Under the pieces are notes generated by a model. That model was not told the origin of the DNA, did no database searches, and was given only the letters and a program-made list of their open reading frames with translations. From an uncultured Bacteroidales bacterium (lineage in GTDB: Bacteria > Bacteroidota > Bacteroidia > Bacteroidales > UBA932), in NCBI GenBank assembly GCA_944326335.1, contig CALVDM010000017.1:1-55872 (forward strand): a stretch of DNA of 55,872 nucleotides. The letters run 5' to 3'. Shown here piece after piece: positions 27,358 to 32,907 of the stretch (the stretch's first letter is position 1; every line of letters begins with the position of its first letter). A program made the position numbers and the translations under genes.

Positions 27358-27406
27358 GCAGAGCTATCTGACTGAAGGTATCCGGGAGATTTACACCGGA
27401 AAGACA
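27358..27406. repeat. 49-bp direct repeat, copy 1
   Basis: Identical over 49 bp to 27474-27522. It starts three bases after the pckA terminator T-tract. It contains AGGTATCCGG (27376-27385), which is also present inverted at 27454-27463. The 67 bp between the copies hold further TCCGGGA/TTTCCGGA fragments. No coding function is evident. Confidence 0.95.
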
Positions 27407-27473: not shown

Positions 27474-27522
27474 GCAGAGCTATCTGACTGAAGGTATCCG
27501 GGAGATTTACACCGGAAAGACA
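27474..27522. repeat. 49-bp direct repeat, copy 2
   Basis: Second perfect copy, ending 9 bp before the stop codon of the barrel gene. The period between copies is 116 bp. The pair fills most of the gap between the converging pckA and barrel genes. Confidence 0.95.
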
Positions 27523-29394: not shown

Positions 29395-30375
29395 ATGAAG
29401 ACAATGAACCTCACCACGGAATGGGACAAGGTGTTCCCGAAGAGCGACAAGGTCGCCCACAGCAAGGAAGAAAAGATGATACACCTTGATACAGTGGATA
29501 CCTACAACCGGCTTTTCGGACTGGAGACGAAGCACCCTCTCGTCGCCGTGGTCGACCTGTCCGAGGCCACGAAGATCCCGTCTCACCTGGCTCTCAACTA
29601 CGGGATTTATGCACTGTTCCTGAAGCAGGTGAAATGCGGAGACATAAGATACGGACGCCAGATATACGACTATCAGGAAGGGACCATCACGAGCTTCGCG
29701 CCAGGACAGGTCAGCGAGGTGGAACTGCCGAAAGGCACCAGCATAAAGGCGATGGGGCTCCTATTCCACCCGGACCTGATAAAGGGAACATCGCTCGGCA
29801 GGGAGATACGGTCATACTCTTTCTTTTCCTACAATTCAAACGAGGCACTGCACCTGTCCGAAGACGAAAAGGCAATTTTCTCCGAATGTCTGAAAAACAT
29901 AAGGATGGAACTGGACCATCCGATAGACAGGCTCAGCAAGAGACTGATTTCAAGAAACATACAGCTCCTGCTCGACTATTGCATGCGGTTCTATGAGAGG
30001 CAGTTCAACACAAGGGCTTCCGTGAACAGCGACATACTTTCGAAATTCGAGACCCTGCTCGATGAGTATTTCCTCAGCGGACGGCCTGAGGACCAGGGCC
30101 TGCCGACAGTGAGATATTTCGCTGACAAAGTGTTCCTTTCCCCCAACTATTTCGGGGACCTCATAAAGAAAGAGACCGGAAAGACTCCTCAGGAATACAT
30201 CCAGGACAAGCTCATCGACCTCTCAAAGGAAATGATTGCCGGGACCGACGAGACAATCAGCGAGATAGCATACCGGCTCGGCTTCCAGTATTCGCAGCAC
30301 TTCAACAGGCTTTTCAAGAAAAATGTAGGCTGCACGCCTAACGAGTATCGCCGGTCCTGCGCCGGACATAACTAA
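29395..30375 (+). CDS. AraC family transcriptional regulator
   Basis: A 326-residue regulator. Residues 1-200 form a cupin-like sensor part (LALNYGIYALFLKQVKCG, GTITSFAPGQVSEVE, MGLLFHPDLIKGT). The C-terminal AraC domain has both helix-turn-helix units: FADKVFLSPNYFGDLIKKETG, first half VRYFADKVFLSPNYFGDLIK, and second half ISEIAYRLGFQYSQHFNRLF followed by KKNVGCTPNEYRRS. Upstream, TGTAAT (29366-29371) and ATTACA (29384-29389) form an inverted repeat that could be a binding site. The last 15 codons lie in a 46-bp direct repeat whose second copy is 1.39 kb downstream. The present TAA stop comes from the insertion junction; in the other copy the same frame ends in TGA. Targets unknown; the CDF gene is the nearest candidate. 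Confidence 0.9.
   Translation: MKTMNLTTEWDKVFPKSDKVAHSKEEKMIHLDTVDTYNRLFGLETKHPLVAVVDLSEATKIPSHLALNYGIYALFLKQVKCGDIRYGRQIYDYQEGTITSFAPGQVSEVELPKGTSIKAMGLLFHPDLIKGTSLGREIRSYSFFSYNSNEALHLSEDEKAIFSECLKNIRMELDHPIDRLSKRLISRNIQLLLDYCMRFYERQFNTRASVNSDILSKFETLLDEYFLSGRPEDQGLPTVRYFADKVFLSPNYFGDLIKKETGKTPQEYIQDKLIDLSKEMIAGTDETISEIAYRLGFQYSQHFNRLFKKNVGCTPNEYRRSCAGHN
30328..30373. repeat. 46-bp direct repeat, left copy (AraC gene 3' end)
   Basis: A perfect 46-bp match to 31719-31764. This copy encodes the last 15 residues of the AraC regulator. The bases on either side differ between copies (A/C before, A/G after), so the repeat boundaries are exact. Confidence 0.97.
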
Positions 30376-30378
30376 AAA

Positions 30379-30396
30379 AGTGGTATATTTACCACT
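30379..30396. repeat. Short inverted repeat at the left end of the insert
   Basis: AGTGGTA, a TATT loop and TACCACT, a perfect 7-bp stem beginning 3 bp after the AraC stop codon. It lacks a T-run on the plus side, so it may be an operator-like site (it contains TATATTTA, a near -7 box) rather than a terminator. Confidence 0.5.
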
Positions 30397-30473
30397 AATT
30401 AACGTGAATTCGATGAAATGAATGGAATGAATTTAAGAGAATTACCTCTATAGAGGACGAAGTCCGGCGTAAG

Positions 30474-30495
30474 TTCTCCCCTACGCAGGGGAGAA
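30474..30495. repeat. GC-rich inverted repeat in the Fic leader
   Basis: TTCTCCCCT, loop ACGC, AGGGGAGAA: a perfect 9-bp stem. A 12-bp palindrome CCTCTATAGAGG lies just before it (30445-30456). AATTTAAGAG occurs on both sides of this block (near 30430 and 30495). The pattern resembles repetitive extragenic elements. Confidence 0.6.
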
Positions 30496-30541
30496 TTTAA
30501 GAGGGGTGACACGAAAAAGGAAAGGGATTTCGAAGAAATCG

Positions 30542-30600
30542 TAACGTCAGTTCGACGGAATCTCTGATATTGAACAGAATAATTCGTCGAACTGACGTTA
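30542..30600. repeat. 16-bp inverted repeat upstream of the Fic gene
   Basis: TAACGTCAGTTCGACG (30542-30557) is repeated inverted at 30585-30600 with 27 bp between. The outer half TGACGTTA occurs again across the Fic stop codon (31690-31697). It ends 18 bp before the Fic ATG, so it could be an operator or a leader hairpin that limits expression. Confidence 0.7.
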
Positions 30601-30618
30601 TTTAGAGTGTTTTCAGGG

Positions 30619-31692
30619 ATGAAGTATCTGAATGTTCACAAGGCGATAGCTGCCTGGAAAGCCATCCAGCCACTTTCAGAACGAGACAGGGAGCGTCTCG
30701 GCCGCAAGTTTACGGTGGAGTTCAACTTCAACAGCAACCATATTGAGGGCAACACGCTTACCTATGGTCAGACAGAGCTCCTGCTGCTCTTCGGCAAGGT
30801 GATCGGCGAAGCCGATATGAAAGACCTGGAGGAGATGAAAGCCAGCAATATAGGTCTGAAGATGATGCAGGAGCAAGCCGGCATCAAGGATATGCCTCTT
30901 ACCCAGAACTTCATCCGCATGCTTCACAAGACGCTGATCCGCGAAGATTACACAGTCTGCCGTGAACTGCCAGGCGGACAGCAGACCAGCTACGTCATCC
31001 ATGCAGGAAGATACAAGAGCCGCCCCAACAGTGTCATTACACGCTACGGAGACCGTTTCGAGTATGCTGCCCCGGAAGAGACGGCTGCACTTATGACAGA
31101 CCTTGTGGACTGGTACAACAAGGAAGAAACGAAAGGCAAACTTTCACCCGTCGAACTGGCTGCACTCTTCCACTACCGTTACATACGGATTCATCCGTTC
31201 GAGGACGGAAACGGCCGTATCGCGCGTCTGCTCGTCAACTACATCCTCGTCCGACACGGTTACCCGATGATTGTGGTACGCAGCCGTTGTAAGAAGGAAT
31301 ATCTGGAAGCGCTCCACCAGGCCGACCTCGATGCAGGCCCGACGCCAGATGCCGGTGCTCACGCAGACCTGAATCAAATCCGTCCATTCCTGCGGTACTT
31401 TACCACACTGGTGGCTGAAGAAATCTACAACGACGTCCGTTTCCTGACTGAGCCAGACGAGAACGTATGGTGGTATGACGGCCAGCGCATCGAATTCCGT
31501 ACGCCAAACTACGCAAGGATTCTCCGCATCATGCAGTCCCAGTCATCTGTCACCATCGACAGCCTGCGGGAACAGCTGCACATCAACAAGTCCGCAATCC
31601 AGCGGCTGCTCACCAGCCTGAAGGAGAAAGGATACATTGAAGCGCGCGACAGCAACGGAGGATGGCGAGTATTCATCACTCCGTCCGTATGA
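30619..31692 (+). CDS. Fic family protein (putative AMP transferase) with winged-helix C-terminus
   Basis: A 357-residue Fic protein. The catalytic motif HPFEDGNGRIARLL lies near residue 195 with all key residues (HPFx(D/E)GNGRxxR). An N-terminal inhibitory helix motif S-N-H-I-E-G-N (near residue 40) matches the class II (S/T)xxxE(G/N) signature, so the enzyme should be held inactive until the glutamate is displaced. The flap region YKSRPNSVITR precedes the core. The C-terminus (SSVTIDSLREQLHINKSA, IQRLLTSLKEKGYIEAR) is a winged helix that may bind DNA. I take the ATG at 30619; a GTG 12 bp upstream is also in frame. Fic enzymes usually transfer AMP to proteins; target unknown. No antitoxin gene is adjacent. 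Lies in an inserted segment between 46-bp repeats. Confidence 0.92.
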   Translation: MKYLNVHKAIAAWKAIQPLSERDRERLGRKFTVEFNFNSNHIEGNTLTYGQTELLLLFGKVIGEADMKDLEEMKASNIGLKMMQEQAGIKDMPLTQNFIRMLHKTLIREDYTVCRELPGGQQTSYVIHAGRYKSRPNSVITRYGDRFEYAAPEETAALMTDLVDWYNKEETKGKLSPVELAALFHYRYIRIHPFEDGNGRIARLLVNYILVRHGYPMIVVRSRCKKEYLEALHQADLDAGPTPDAGAHADLNQIRPFLRYFTTLVAEEIYNDVRFLTEPDENVWWYDGQRIEFRTPNYARILRIMQSQSSVTIDSLREQLHINKSAIQRLLTSLKEKGYIEARDSNGGWRVFITPSV

Positions 31693-31718
31693 CGTTACTT
31701 CTCTTGTCTCAGATGCAC

Positions 31719-31764
31719 GGCTGCACGCCTAACGAGTATCGCCGGTCCTGCGCCGGACATAACT
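31719..31764. repeat. 46-bp direct repeat, right copy (aminotransferase 3' end)
   Basis: Second perfect copy. On the minus strand it encodes the last 11 residues and the stop of the PatB-like gene. On the plus strand it still carries the AraC frame, ending in TGA at 31764-31766, which looks like the original AraC stop. Confidence 0.97.
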
Positions 31765-32907
31765 GAGGAATCTTCCGAGCCCTTCTTCAAGACGGGACCG
31801 TGGGCAGGCTATGTTCCATCTCATATATCCTTCGCCTTCCCGGCCGTACATGGTACCTGCATTGAGCCATATCCCGGCATCCTTCATGAGAACTTCCTCA
31901 AGGGTTTCCGACGGCATCTGCAGAGCGGAGCAGTCCATCCAAACGAGATAAGTCCCCTGAAGGTCAGCCAGAGGGAATTCCGGGAGATTCCTCTCACAGA
32001 ACTCCCGCATGAAGACATAGTTCGACCTGAGATAGCCCAGGAGCTGCGACAGCCATTCCTCGCCCTCATCATAGGCGGCCATGGTGGCAACAACACCGAA
32101 CGGATTCACGTCGCAGACTTCATTCACATTTATCGCCCTGTCGATTTTCTCCCTTATTTCCGGGCAGGGGACAATTATGTCGGCAATCTGCAGTCCGGCA
32201 ATATTGAATGCCTTGCTCGGTGAGACGCATGTCGCCGAATTCATGGCGAACCTGTCCGACAGAGATGCGAACGGGACATGTCTGTACCCTTCATACACAA
32301 GTTCGCAGTGTATCTCGTCTGCAATCACGAACACATTGTGTCTGAGGCATATCTCCCCTATCCTTTTCAGTTCGTCTGCAGTCCATACCCTGCCTGCAGG
32401 ATTGTGCGGACTGCACAGGATGAACACTTTCACGGCAGGGTCGGCCGCCTTGGACTCGAAATCGGCGAAATCCATCTCGTAGGTGTCCCCCTTGCGCACC
32501 AGAGGTGAGGCAAGGGCTTCGCACCCGTTGTTACGGATGGAAGAGAAGAAACAGTTGTACACAGGTGTCTGGACAAGAACCTTGTCTGACGGGGAAGTCA
32601 TTGCCTTGATGATTGCCGACACTGCAGGGACCACACCGGAAGTGTATATAATCCATTCTTTCCTGATGTCAAAGCCATGACGGCGGCGGAACCAGTCCGT
32701 CACAGACCTGTAATACGCGTCAGGTACCTTGGTGTAGCCGAAAATGCCATGCGACACCCGGCGCGAAAGGGCATCCGTGACAGGGGCGGCAGTGCGGAAA
32801 TCCATATCCGCCACCCAGAGAGGTATGGTATTGTCGTCCGGGCAGCTGTCCCACTTGTAGGAACAGGTGCCGCGTCTCGGGATTATCTCGTCGAAATCGT
32901 ACTTCAT
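31729..32907 (-). CDS. MalY/PatB family PLP-dependent aminotransferase/C-S lyase
   Basis: A 392-residue fold-type I PLP enzyme. The MalY/PatB hallmarks are present: DFDEIIPRRGTCSYKWD at the start, PLWVADMDFRTAAPV, HGIFGYTKVP, CSPHNPAGRVWT, VIADEIHCELVY and the Schiff-base lysine in SPSKAFNIAGLQ; the C-terminus has MRWNIACPRSRLEEGL. Members act as cystathionine beta-lyases or related C-S lyases giving a thiol, pyruvate and ammonia. It lies 17 bp behind the DUF3737 gene and shares its promoter. The last 11 codons lie in the 46-bp repeat left by the Fic insertion, so its end is intact although the neighbouring AraC gene has been moved away. Confidence 0.92.
   Translation of the reverse strand: MKYDFDEIIPRRGTCSYKWDSCPDDNTIPLWVADMDFRTAAPVTDALSRRVSHGIFGYTKVPDAYYRSVTDWFRRRHGFDIRKEWIIYTSGVVPAVSAIIKAMTSPSDKVLVQTPVYNCFFSSIRNNGCEALASPLVRKGDTYEMDFADFESKAADPAVKVFILCSPHNPAGRVWTADELKRIGEICLRHNVFVIADEIHCELVYEGYRHVPFASLSDRFAMNSATCVSPSKAFNIAGLQIADIIVPCPEIREKIDRAINVNEVCDVNPFGVVATMAAYDEGEEWLSQLLGYLRSNYVFMREFCERNLPEFPLADLQGTYLVWMDCSALQMPSETLEEVLMKDAGIWLNAGTMYGREGEGYMRWNIACPRSRLEEGLGRFLSYVRRRTGDTR

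What the first reader, a model, noticed from the sequence alone, without database searches (positions are those of the whole stretch)
30328..31764. Fic gene inserted between two convergent genes, with a 46-bp duplication that rebuilds both 3' ends
A perfect 46-bp direct repeat flanks a 1345-bp segment whose only gene is a Fic AMP-transferase-like protein. The left copy completes the AraC regulator. The right copy completes the PatB-like aminotransferase on the opposite strand, and still carries the old AraC frame ending in TGA. So before insertion the two genes overlapped tail to tail by about 38 bp inside this very sequence. The duplication is far longer than usual IS target duplications, resembles an att core at a gene end, yet no recombinase is encoded. 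The Fic gene also has different arginine codon use. This could be a minimal non-autonomous cargo element that targets gene ends.
Basis: partly seen in the sequence, partly recalled or inferred. Interest (0 to 1): 0.75.

Follow-up and report, generated by a model that had tools for sequence, protein, structure and literature searches.

The report
Fic gene inserted by target duplication
A lone Fic gene has been inserted between two tail-to-tail bacterial genes with a 46-base copy of the landing site, so that both neighbours stay whole; some relatives of this gene sit at other places with the same kind of variable-length duplication, a mode of gene movement described before for restriction-modification genes.

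Summary
A perfect 46-bp direct repeat (30328-30373, 31719-31764) brackets 1345 bp whose only sense gene is an autoinhibited-type Fic AMP-transferase. The predicted ancestor exists: in a congener (G178) araC and patB stand tail to tail without Fic, overlapping by exactly 38 bp, araC ending in TGA; four more congeners are empty too.

A fixed att core is not supported. The "240-bp leader" is mostly a dispersed MITE-like repeat; only about 26 bp is the gene's own promoter/operator.

Of 74 other Fic-family loci (72 distinct), 10 are tightly bracketed by direct repeats, against 0 of 126 other ORFs in the same loci and 0 of 36 patB loci. On reading, five of the ten are convincing (32, 45, 56, 171, 199 bp; unlike each other; copying gene ends, a terminator or a promoter region) and five are doubtful. 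One (G688) has a single-copy empty site in a relative. I saw no shared insert ends.

This is insertion with long, variable target duplication, known for restriction-modification genes, here carrying a solitary Fic gene. The machinery is unknown.

The parts
29395..30375 (+). AraC-family regulator (326 aa), 3' end completed by the left repeat copy plus AA
   Evidence: ORF; Pfam HTH_18 E 3e-21; relatives with the same araC-patB pair
30328..30373 (+). left copy of the 46-bp target duplication
   Evidence: the repeat finder, 100% identity
30374..31718 (+). inserted segment, 1345 bp
   Evidence: between the repeat copies; absent in G178, G114, G347, G261, G041
30374..30399 (+). the Fic gene's own promoter/operator region: AAAAAA + palindrome GTGGTATATTTACCAC (30380-30395)
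   Evidence: the same kind of palindrome lies within 60 bp of the start in 13 of 13 close relatives compared; promoter/operator role inferred
30400..30600 (+). dispersed MITE/REP-like repeat lying between the palindrome and the Fic ORF; imperfect terminal inverted repeats TAACGTGAATTCGATGAA / TTCGTCGAACTGACGTTA
   Evidence: the leader gives 31 BLAST pieces in the own genome, its own included, beside unrelated genes; not present between palindrome and start in the 13 close Fic relatives; terminal repeats compared by eye
30619..31692 (+). Fic protein, 357 aa, motif HPFEDGNGR, inhibitory-type motif SNHIEG, C-terminal winged helix
   Evidence: Pfam Fic E 1.7e-20 and MarR_2 5.4e-7; PDB 3cuc E 2.8e-101; motifs; PADLOC SoFic E 4e-33 over residues 27-355 and PDC-S04 E 2e-33
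31693..31718 (+). 26-bp tail of the insert; no resemblance seen to other insert ends
   Evidence: compared by eye
31719..31764 (+). right copy of the 46-bp target duplication; still holds the old araC end (TGA at 31764-31766)
31729..32907 (-). PatB/MalY-like aminotransferase (392 aa), 3' end inside the right repeat copy
   Evidence: ORF; Pfam Aminotran_1_2 E 1.4e-38; 38-bp overlap with araC in G178

Best explanation
A solitary Fic gene with its own palindromic promoter region and no mobility gene was inserted into the 38-bp overlap of two convergent genes, and 46 bp of the target were duplicated, so both neighbours kept intact 3' ends. This is insertion with long and variable target duplication, the mode described for restriction-modification genes. 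Shown: the duplication; empty sites with a single copy at two loci; further Fic loci with host-derived repeats of other lengths and sequences; no conserved insert ends seen by eye. Inferred: the segment entered at a target opened by two offset breaks (46 nt apart here, 32-199 elsewhere), or by a template switch, with repair synthesis copying the stretch between. Selection then keeps insertions in which the copied stretch covers what both neighbours need. A dispersed MITE-like repeat now separates the palindrome from the ORF; whether it came before or after the insertion is not known. The Fic enzyme is probably an autoinhibited AMP-transferase that represses its own promoter; a SoFic-like phage-defence or selfish role is inferred from family resemblance only.
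For: Exact repeat with both gene ends. Empty sites: G178 single copy, araC stop TGA, 38-bp overlap; G114, G347, G261, G041 convergent pair, no Fic, no duplication (five pairs among the 30 loci fetched from 400 congeners). In the printed part no other genome has a match spanning araC, Fic and patB. Fic relatives at 83-90% aa identity lie at other places. Tight bracketing (>=30 bp, >=85%, both copies within 450 bp): 10 of 74 Fic loci, window not counted, against 0 of 126 other 200-500 aa ORFs of the same loci (two-sided p 3.2e-5) and 0 of 36 patB loci; 74 holds 2 redundant pairs, none bracketed, and 36 holds 2. Convincing five: L144 199 bp with the last 83 nt of the upstream gene, L177 171 bp with the last 159 nt of a RidA gene, L168 56 bp with the last 55 nt of an FtsX/MacB permease gene, L215 45 bp with stop codon and terminator, L214 32 bp just upstream of ispD; 5 of 74 against 0 of 162, one-sided p 0.003. 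Second empty site: G816, one copy contiguous with both sides. No further copy of the L177 repeat was listed in its genome (40 of 89 candidates scored).
Against: 64 of 74 Fic loci show no such repeat, so most insertions are old, of another kind, or without duplication. Five of the ten bracketed loci are doubtful: L217 is a dispersed promoter motif, L230 resembles one, L130 holds a hairpin and L148 operator-like palindromes that may be dispersed, L132 is 31 bp at 87%. L073 has long repeats at 81% that look repetitive and were not resolved. The strict five were chosen after looking. Genome-wide copy number was not tested for the L144 and L168 repeats and only partly for the others. In G816 the single copy is about 89% over 27 bp and the bases just left of it align poorly. 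The molecular route was not tested.
Confidence: 0.75

Rival explanations
1. Site-specific integration by a recombinase acting in trans, the 46 bp being an att core at a gene end.
For: The repeat restores gene ends, as att cores do; the insert has no recombinase of its own; one Fic relative (L107) lies just after an ORF whose end reads like a tyrosine recombinase (by eye).
Against: Convincing repeats at other Fic loci have other sequences and lengths (32-199 bp) and derive from each host site; no shared ends seen; close Fic relatives show no shared core.
Confidence: 0.08
2. A short tandem duplication of the 46 bp existed first and the Fic segment later entered exactly at its junction, or the whole was built in one event by replication template switching.
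For: A template switch that steps back 46 nt gives the same product; G477 holds three copies of one 45-bp terminator around a YhcG gene and a Fic gene.
Against: For the two-step form, entry exactly at a tandem junction is improbable when repeated at unlinked loci, and the empty relatives seen hold one copy, not two. Template switching in one event is not excluded and is close to the best explanation.
Confidence: 0.12
3. A classical non-autonomous transposon, with the MITE-like leader as its mobile end.
For: The leader holds a dispersed repeat with imperfect terminal inverted repeats; 31 BLAST pieces in the genome, its own included.
Against: The dispersed repeat is on one side only and occurs alone elsewhere; it is absent between palindrome and start in 13 close Fic relatives; 46 bp exceeds usual transposase duplications (recalled) and lengths vary between loci.
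Confidence: 0.03
4. Assembly artefact or chimera.
For: The genome is a 61-contig draft, 89.67% complete; some contigs end inside the dispersed repeat.
Against: Both genes are complete with matching ends, the ancestral state exists in a relative, and the pattern recurs in other assemblies.
Confidence: 0.02

Closest known systems
Insertion with long and variable target duplication of restriction-modification genes (Nobusato et al. 2000; Furuta et al. 2010)
   Same: Gene unit not linked to a mobile element, inserted with a long direct duplication of host target of variable length. [quoted passage not shown] PMC1643837 describes the pattern for Helicobacter pylori RM genes; PMC3031569 speaks of 'long and variable target duplications'.
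   Different: Cargo is a single Fic gene (and once a YhcG nuclease gene), in Bacteroidales, with repeats of 32-199 bp. The two primary papers were not read: one search found Furuta 2010 not held; Nobusato 2000 was seen only as a citation.
Fic protein of PDB 3cuc (gene name BT2513 of Bacteroides thetaiotaomicron is recalled)
   Same: Closest solved structure, E 2.8e-101 over residues 4-266
   Different: Our C-terminal winged helix lies outside the matched stretch
SoFic anti-phage protein
   Same: PADLOC SoFic match over residues 27-355, E 4e-33; Sofic is reported as a toxic AMPylator in phage defence (PMC12249575, abstract read)
   Different: 33.9 bits against a cut-off of 550 in NCBIfam; the paper's antitoxin gene lies downstream, whereas here only 26 bp of insert follow Fic; defence untested
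Integron gene cassettes
   Same: Single-gene units apparently added in series at one site in G477 (YhcG, then Fic, each followed by a copy of the same terminator)
   Different: No shared cassette ends seen; repeats are host sequence; no search for an integron integrase was made

Membership tests
Insertion with long target duplication | direct repeat much longer than usual transposase duplications flanks the inserted gene | tested here: met
   46 bp, 100%
Insertion with long target duplication | related genome has one copy of the target and no insert | tested here: met
   G178, 38-bp overlap; G816 for a second locus
Insertion with long target duplication | repeat length varies between insertions | tested here: met
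   32, 45, 46, 56, 171, 199 bp
Insertion with long target duplication | insert not linked to mobility genes, no fixed ends | tested here: met
   only Fic in sense in this insert; ends compared by eye
Insertion with long target duplication | cargo is a restriction-modification system, as in the described cases | tested here: not met
   cargo is Fic; hence 'new variant', not a plain member
Integrase att-type island | constant core shared by related elements | tested here: not met
   repeats differ between loci; close relatives mostly have none
Integrase att-type island | integrase gene in cis or trans | not tested
   none in the insert; the genome was not searched for one
Class II Fic (class name and inhibitory consensus recalled) | HPFx[D/E]GN[G/K]R motif and N-terminal (S/T)xxxE(G/N) motif | tested here: met
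   HPFEDGNGR, SNHIEG
SoFic defence protein | curated NCBIfam cut-off | tested here: not met
   33.9 against 550 bits
SoFic defence protein | protection against phage | not testable with these tools
   needs an infection assay

The most novel reading that the evidence does not exclude
Solitary conflict-type genes of Bacteroidales (Fic, YhcG nuclease and probably others) spread as promoter-plus-gene units by a common, still unidentified recombination route that duplicates about 30-200 bp of the landing site. That lets a bare gene enter essential or overlapping loci without damage and lets such genes stack one after another at the same terminator, as seems to have happened in G477.
Probability: 0.35. 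Interest if true: 0.8.

Novelty: new variant of a known kind. Interest (0 to 1): 0.58.

Why it matters
Many defence and toxin-like genes appear in genomes one at a time with no visible mobile element, and how they get there is open. A cargo that recurs with variable target duplications and, in two cases, matched empty sites gives concrete events from which to work out the machinery. It also warns that a long repeat at a gene end is not proof of an att site.

Tried and rejected
Considered and rejected: att core (repeats differ between loci); MITE-borne transposon (repeat on one side only). Repeats at L127, L228 and L180 are copies of the Fic operator palindrome and give no support. L217 was first taken as a target duplication and dropped: its 68-bp repeat is a dispersed promoter motif. 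L230 became ambiguous. L179 (54 bp at 81%, copying the 5' end of a YitT gene) falls below the 85% cut-off and is not counted. L073 (378 bp at 81%, exact stretches of 52 and 36 bp) was not resolved. L163's 178-bp repeat pair lies upstream of, not around, its Fic gene. For L215 no clean empty site was found: G671 and G798 share the YhcG gene but not the terminator or right flank within the fetched loci; in G671 pieces of the right flank match about 7-8 kb away on the same contig. For L230 the relatives searched gave no empty site. No structure was predicted; 3cuc was judged close enough.

Counting: 102 candidate loci; those with incomplete Fic or under 450 bp of flank were dropped, leaving 74; L109 was left out as the same locus as L130, and the window was not counted. 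Redundancy at 95% over 1500 bp: L101/L102 and L149/L220 among the 74; L118/L316 and L122/L124 among the 36 patB loci. The 126 control ORFs are mechanical ORFs. YhcG: 30 loci asked for, 24 eligible, 3 bracketed, one of them the known G477 locus.

Literature: 'long target duplication' 17 and 19 papers (passages of PMC1643837, PMC4978471, PMC3031569, PMC2654758 and PMC3874152 read, the PMC2654758 one being only its reference list; the rest seen as listings). Fic with target duplication and direct repeat: one paper, on Proteus resistance genes, seen as a listing. Fic with horizontal transfer, Bacteroidetes and insertion site: none. A search on variable or long target site duplication with toxin-antitoxin gave 92 papers by two of four terms; in the 10 listed neither duplication phrase occurs. 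The library holds open-licence papers only, so absence there is weak.

Full report
The window carries a perfect 46-bp direct repeat at 30328-30373 and 31719-31764. The left copy plus AA ends the AraC-family gene (AAC TAA, 30375). The right copy holds the last 36 bases of the PatB-like gene on the minus strand (stop at 31729) and still reads the old araC end, AAC TGA, at 31764-31766. The only sense gene in the 1345-bp insert is Fic. In about 440 kb of this genome (455,872 bases as counted, with overlaps) three direct-repeat pairs meet a loose definition, and this is the only perfect one; the others are a 35-bp pair at 86% and a 114-bp dispersed element.

The predicted ancestor exists. In 400 congeneric genomes several carry the araC-patB pair; five pairs were among the 30 loci fetched. 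G114 overlaps by 4 bp; G347, G261 and G041 have the convergent pair with gaps of 1-15 bp. None has Fic or a duplication there. So the insert is a derived state of the window lineage, recent enough that the copies are identical while the araC proteins of these relatives are 76-81% identical.

The leader is composite. Thirteen close Fic relatives (83-90% aa identity; two of them, L101 and L102, are the same locus in two species) share a leader with the palindrome GTGGTAT(A/C)TTTACCAC just before the start (13 of 13). In the window the insert begins at the A-run of this leader (30374), so sequence upstream of it was left behind. Bases 30400-30600 belong to a dispersed MITE/REP-like repeat; the leader gives 31 BLAST pieces in the genome, its own included, beside unrelated genes. 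The Bacteroidetes -7 promoter consensus that I see in the palindrome (TA..TTT) is recalled.

The protein is a Fic-domain AMP-transferase with HPFEDGNGR, an N-terminal SNHIEG inhibitory-type motif (consensus recalled) and a C-terminal winged helix. Its closest solved structure is 3cuc. It matches the PADLOC SoFic model over residues 27-355, and PDC-S04 about as well, but all its NCBIfam matches are below cut-off, SoFic included; the best is 'mobile mystery protein B', 50 of 124.4 bits. Sofic is reported as a toxic AMPylator in phage defence (PMC12249575, abstract). A defence or selfish role here is inference.

Recurrence. I scanned Fic-family loci, mostly Bacteroidales by record title or kinship with a few labelled Fibrobacter or Clostridium, for direct repeats around the gene. 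With fixed criteria (>=30 bp, >=85%, both copies within 450 bp of the ORF), 10 of 74 complete Fic loci are bracketed, the window not counted, against 0 of 126 other 200-500 aa ORFs in the same loci (two-sided p 3.2e-5) and 0 of 36 patB loci. Two redundant pairs are in each of the 74 and the 36; none is bracketed. I then read the ten. Five are convincing: L144, 199 bp at 99%, carrying the last 83 nt of the upstream ORF (no Pfam match); L177, 171 bp at 98.8%, carrying the last 159 nt of a RidA gene; L168, 56 bp at 89%, carrying the last 55 nt of an FtsX/MacB permease gene; L215, 45 bp at 97.8%, the stop codon and terminator of the gene upstream; L214, 32 bp at 100%, just upstream of ispD. Five are not: L217 is a dispersed promoter motif, L230 resembles one, and L130, L148 and L132 are ambiguous. 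Strict count: 5 of 74 against 0 of 162, one-sided p 0.003; this subset was chosen after inspection. L127, L228 and L180 show that Fic operators can themselves mimic repeats.

A second empty site. A relative of G688, G816, has a single copy of the 32-bp site contiguous with the right flank and with a poorly conserved left side, and no Fic (89% over 27 bp). No further copy of the L177 repeat was listed in its genome, with 40 of 89 candidates scored. In G477 one terminator occurs three times: after an upstream gene, after a YhcG/DUF1016 nuclease gene (PF06250 E 2e-49) and after Fic, which fits two serial insertions. YhcG loci elsewhere: 3 of 24 bracketed including this one; the other two were not checked for dispersal.

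Mechanism. The convincing repeats differ in sequence and length and derive from each site; I saw no shared insert ends. That argues against an att core and against a transposase with a fixed duplication. It matches insertion with long and variable target duplication, stated in PMC3874152 (passage) for some RM systems and described in PMC1643837 and PMC3031569 (passages). The primary papers (Nobusato 2000; Furuta 2010) were not read. The molecular route is inferred: offset breaks with fill-in, or template switching. The apparent preference for gene ends, a terminator and a promoter region can be selection: in an overlap of 38 bp only a duplication of at least about that length leaves both genes intact.

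Verdict. Observation confirmed, interpretation partly right. This is a new variant of a known kind: the cargo is a single Fic gene in Bacteroidales, the pattern recurs at a minority of Fic loci, and the enzymology is unknown.

Noticed in passing
30400-30600; L021, L022, L024, L029 and others: A dispersed MITE/REP-like repeat family with imperfect terminal inverted repeats and mosaic versions, often just upstream of genes; several contigs begin or end inside it.
   Followed up: partly
L215 92-136, 1326-1370, 2570-2614: Three copies of one stop-plus-terminator sequence in G477: after an upstream gene, after a YhcG nuclease gene and after Fic, as if two solitary genes had entered the same site in turn.
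   Followed up: partly
L148 3769-3911 and 5087-5229; L180 5140-6264: Fic genes next to AAA-ATPase (ATPase_2) genes; in L148 both are preceded by the same 144-bp leader with GGTGGTA..TACCACC palindromes.
   Followed up: partly
L291 (113 bp) and L300 (39 bp): Two further YhcG loci bracketed by direct repeats at 94% and 87%; dispersal not checked.
   Followed up: no
L023 2172-2285 and 3817-3930: A 114-bp repeat pair 1.6 kb apart in the own genome, GC-rich and dispersed; what lies between the copies was not examined.
   Followed up: no
window 27358-27406 and 27474-27522: An exact 49-bp direct repeat, start-to-start 116 bp, seen in the repeat scan.
   Followed up: no
L107 upstream of Fic: An ORF ending like a tyrosine recombinase (read by eye) stops just before the Fic leader in G265, near a contig end.
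   Followed up: no
L073 around Fic: Long imperfect direct repeats (378 bp at 81%, exact stretches of 52 and 36 bp) on both sides of a Fic gene in G044; dispersed or target-derived not decided.
   Followed up: no
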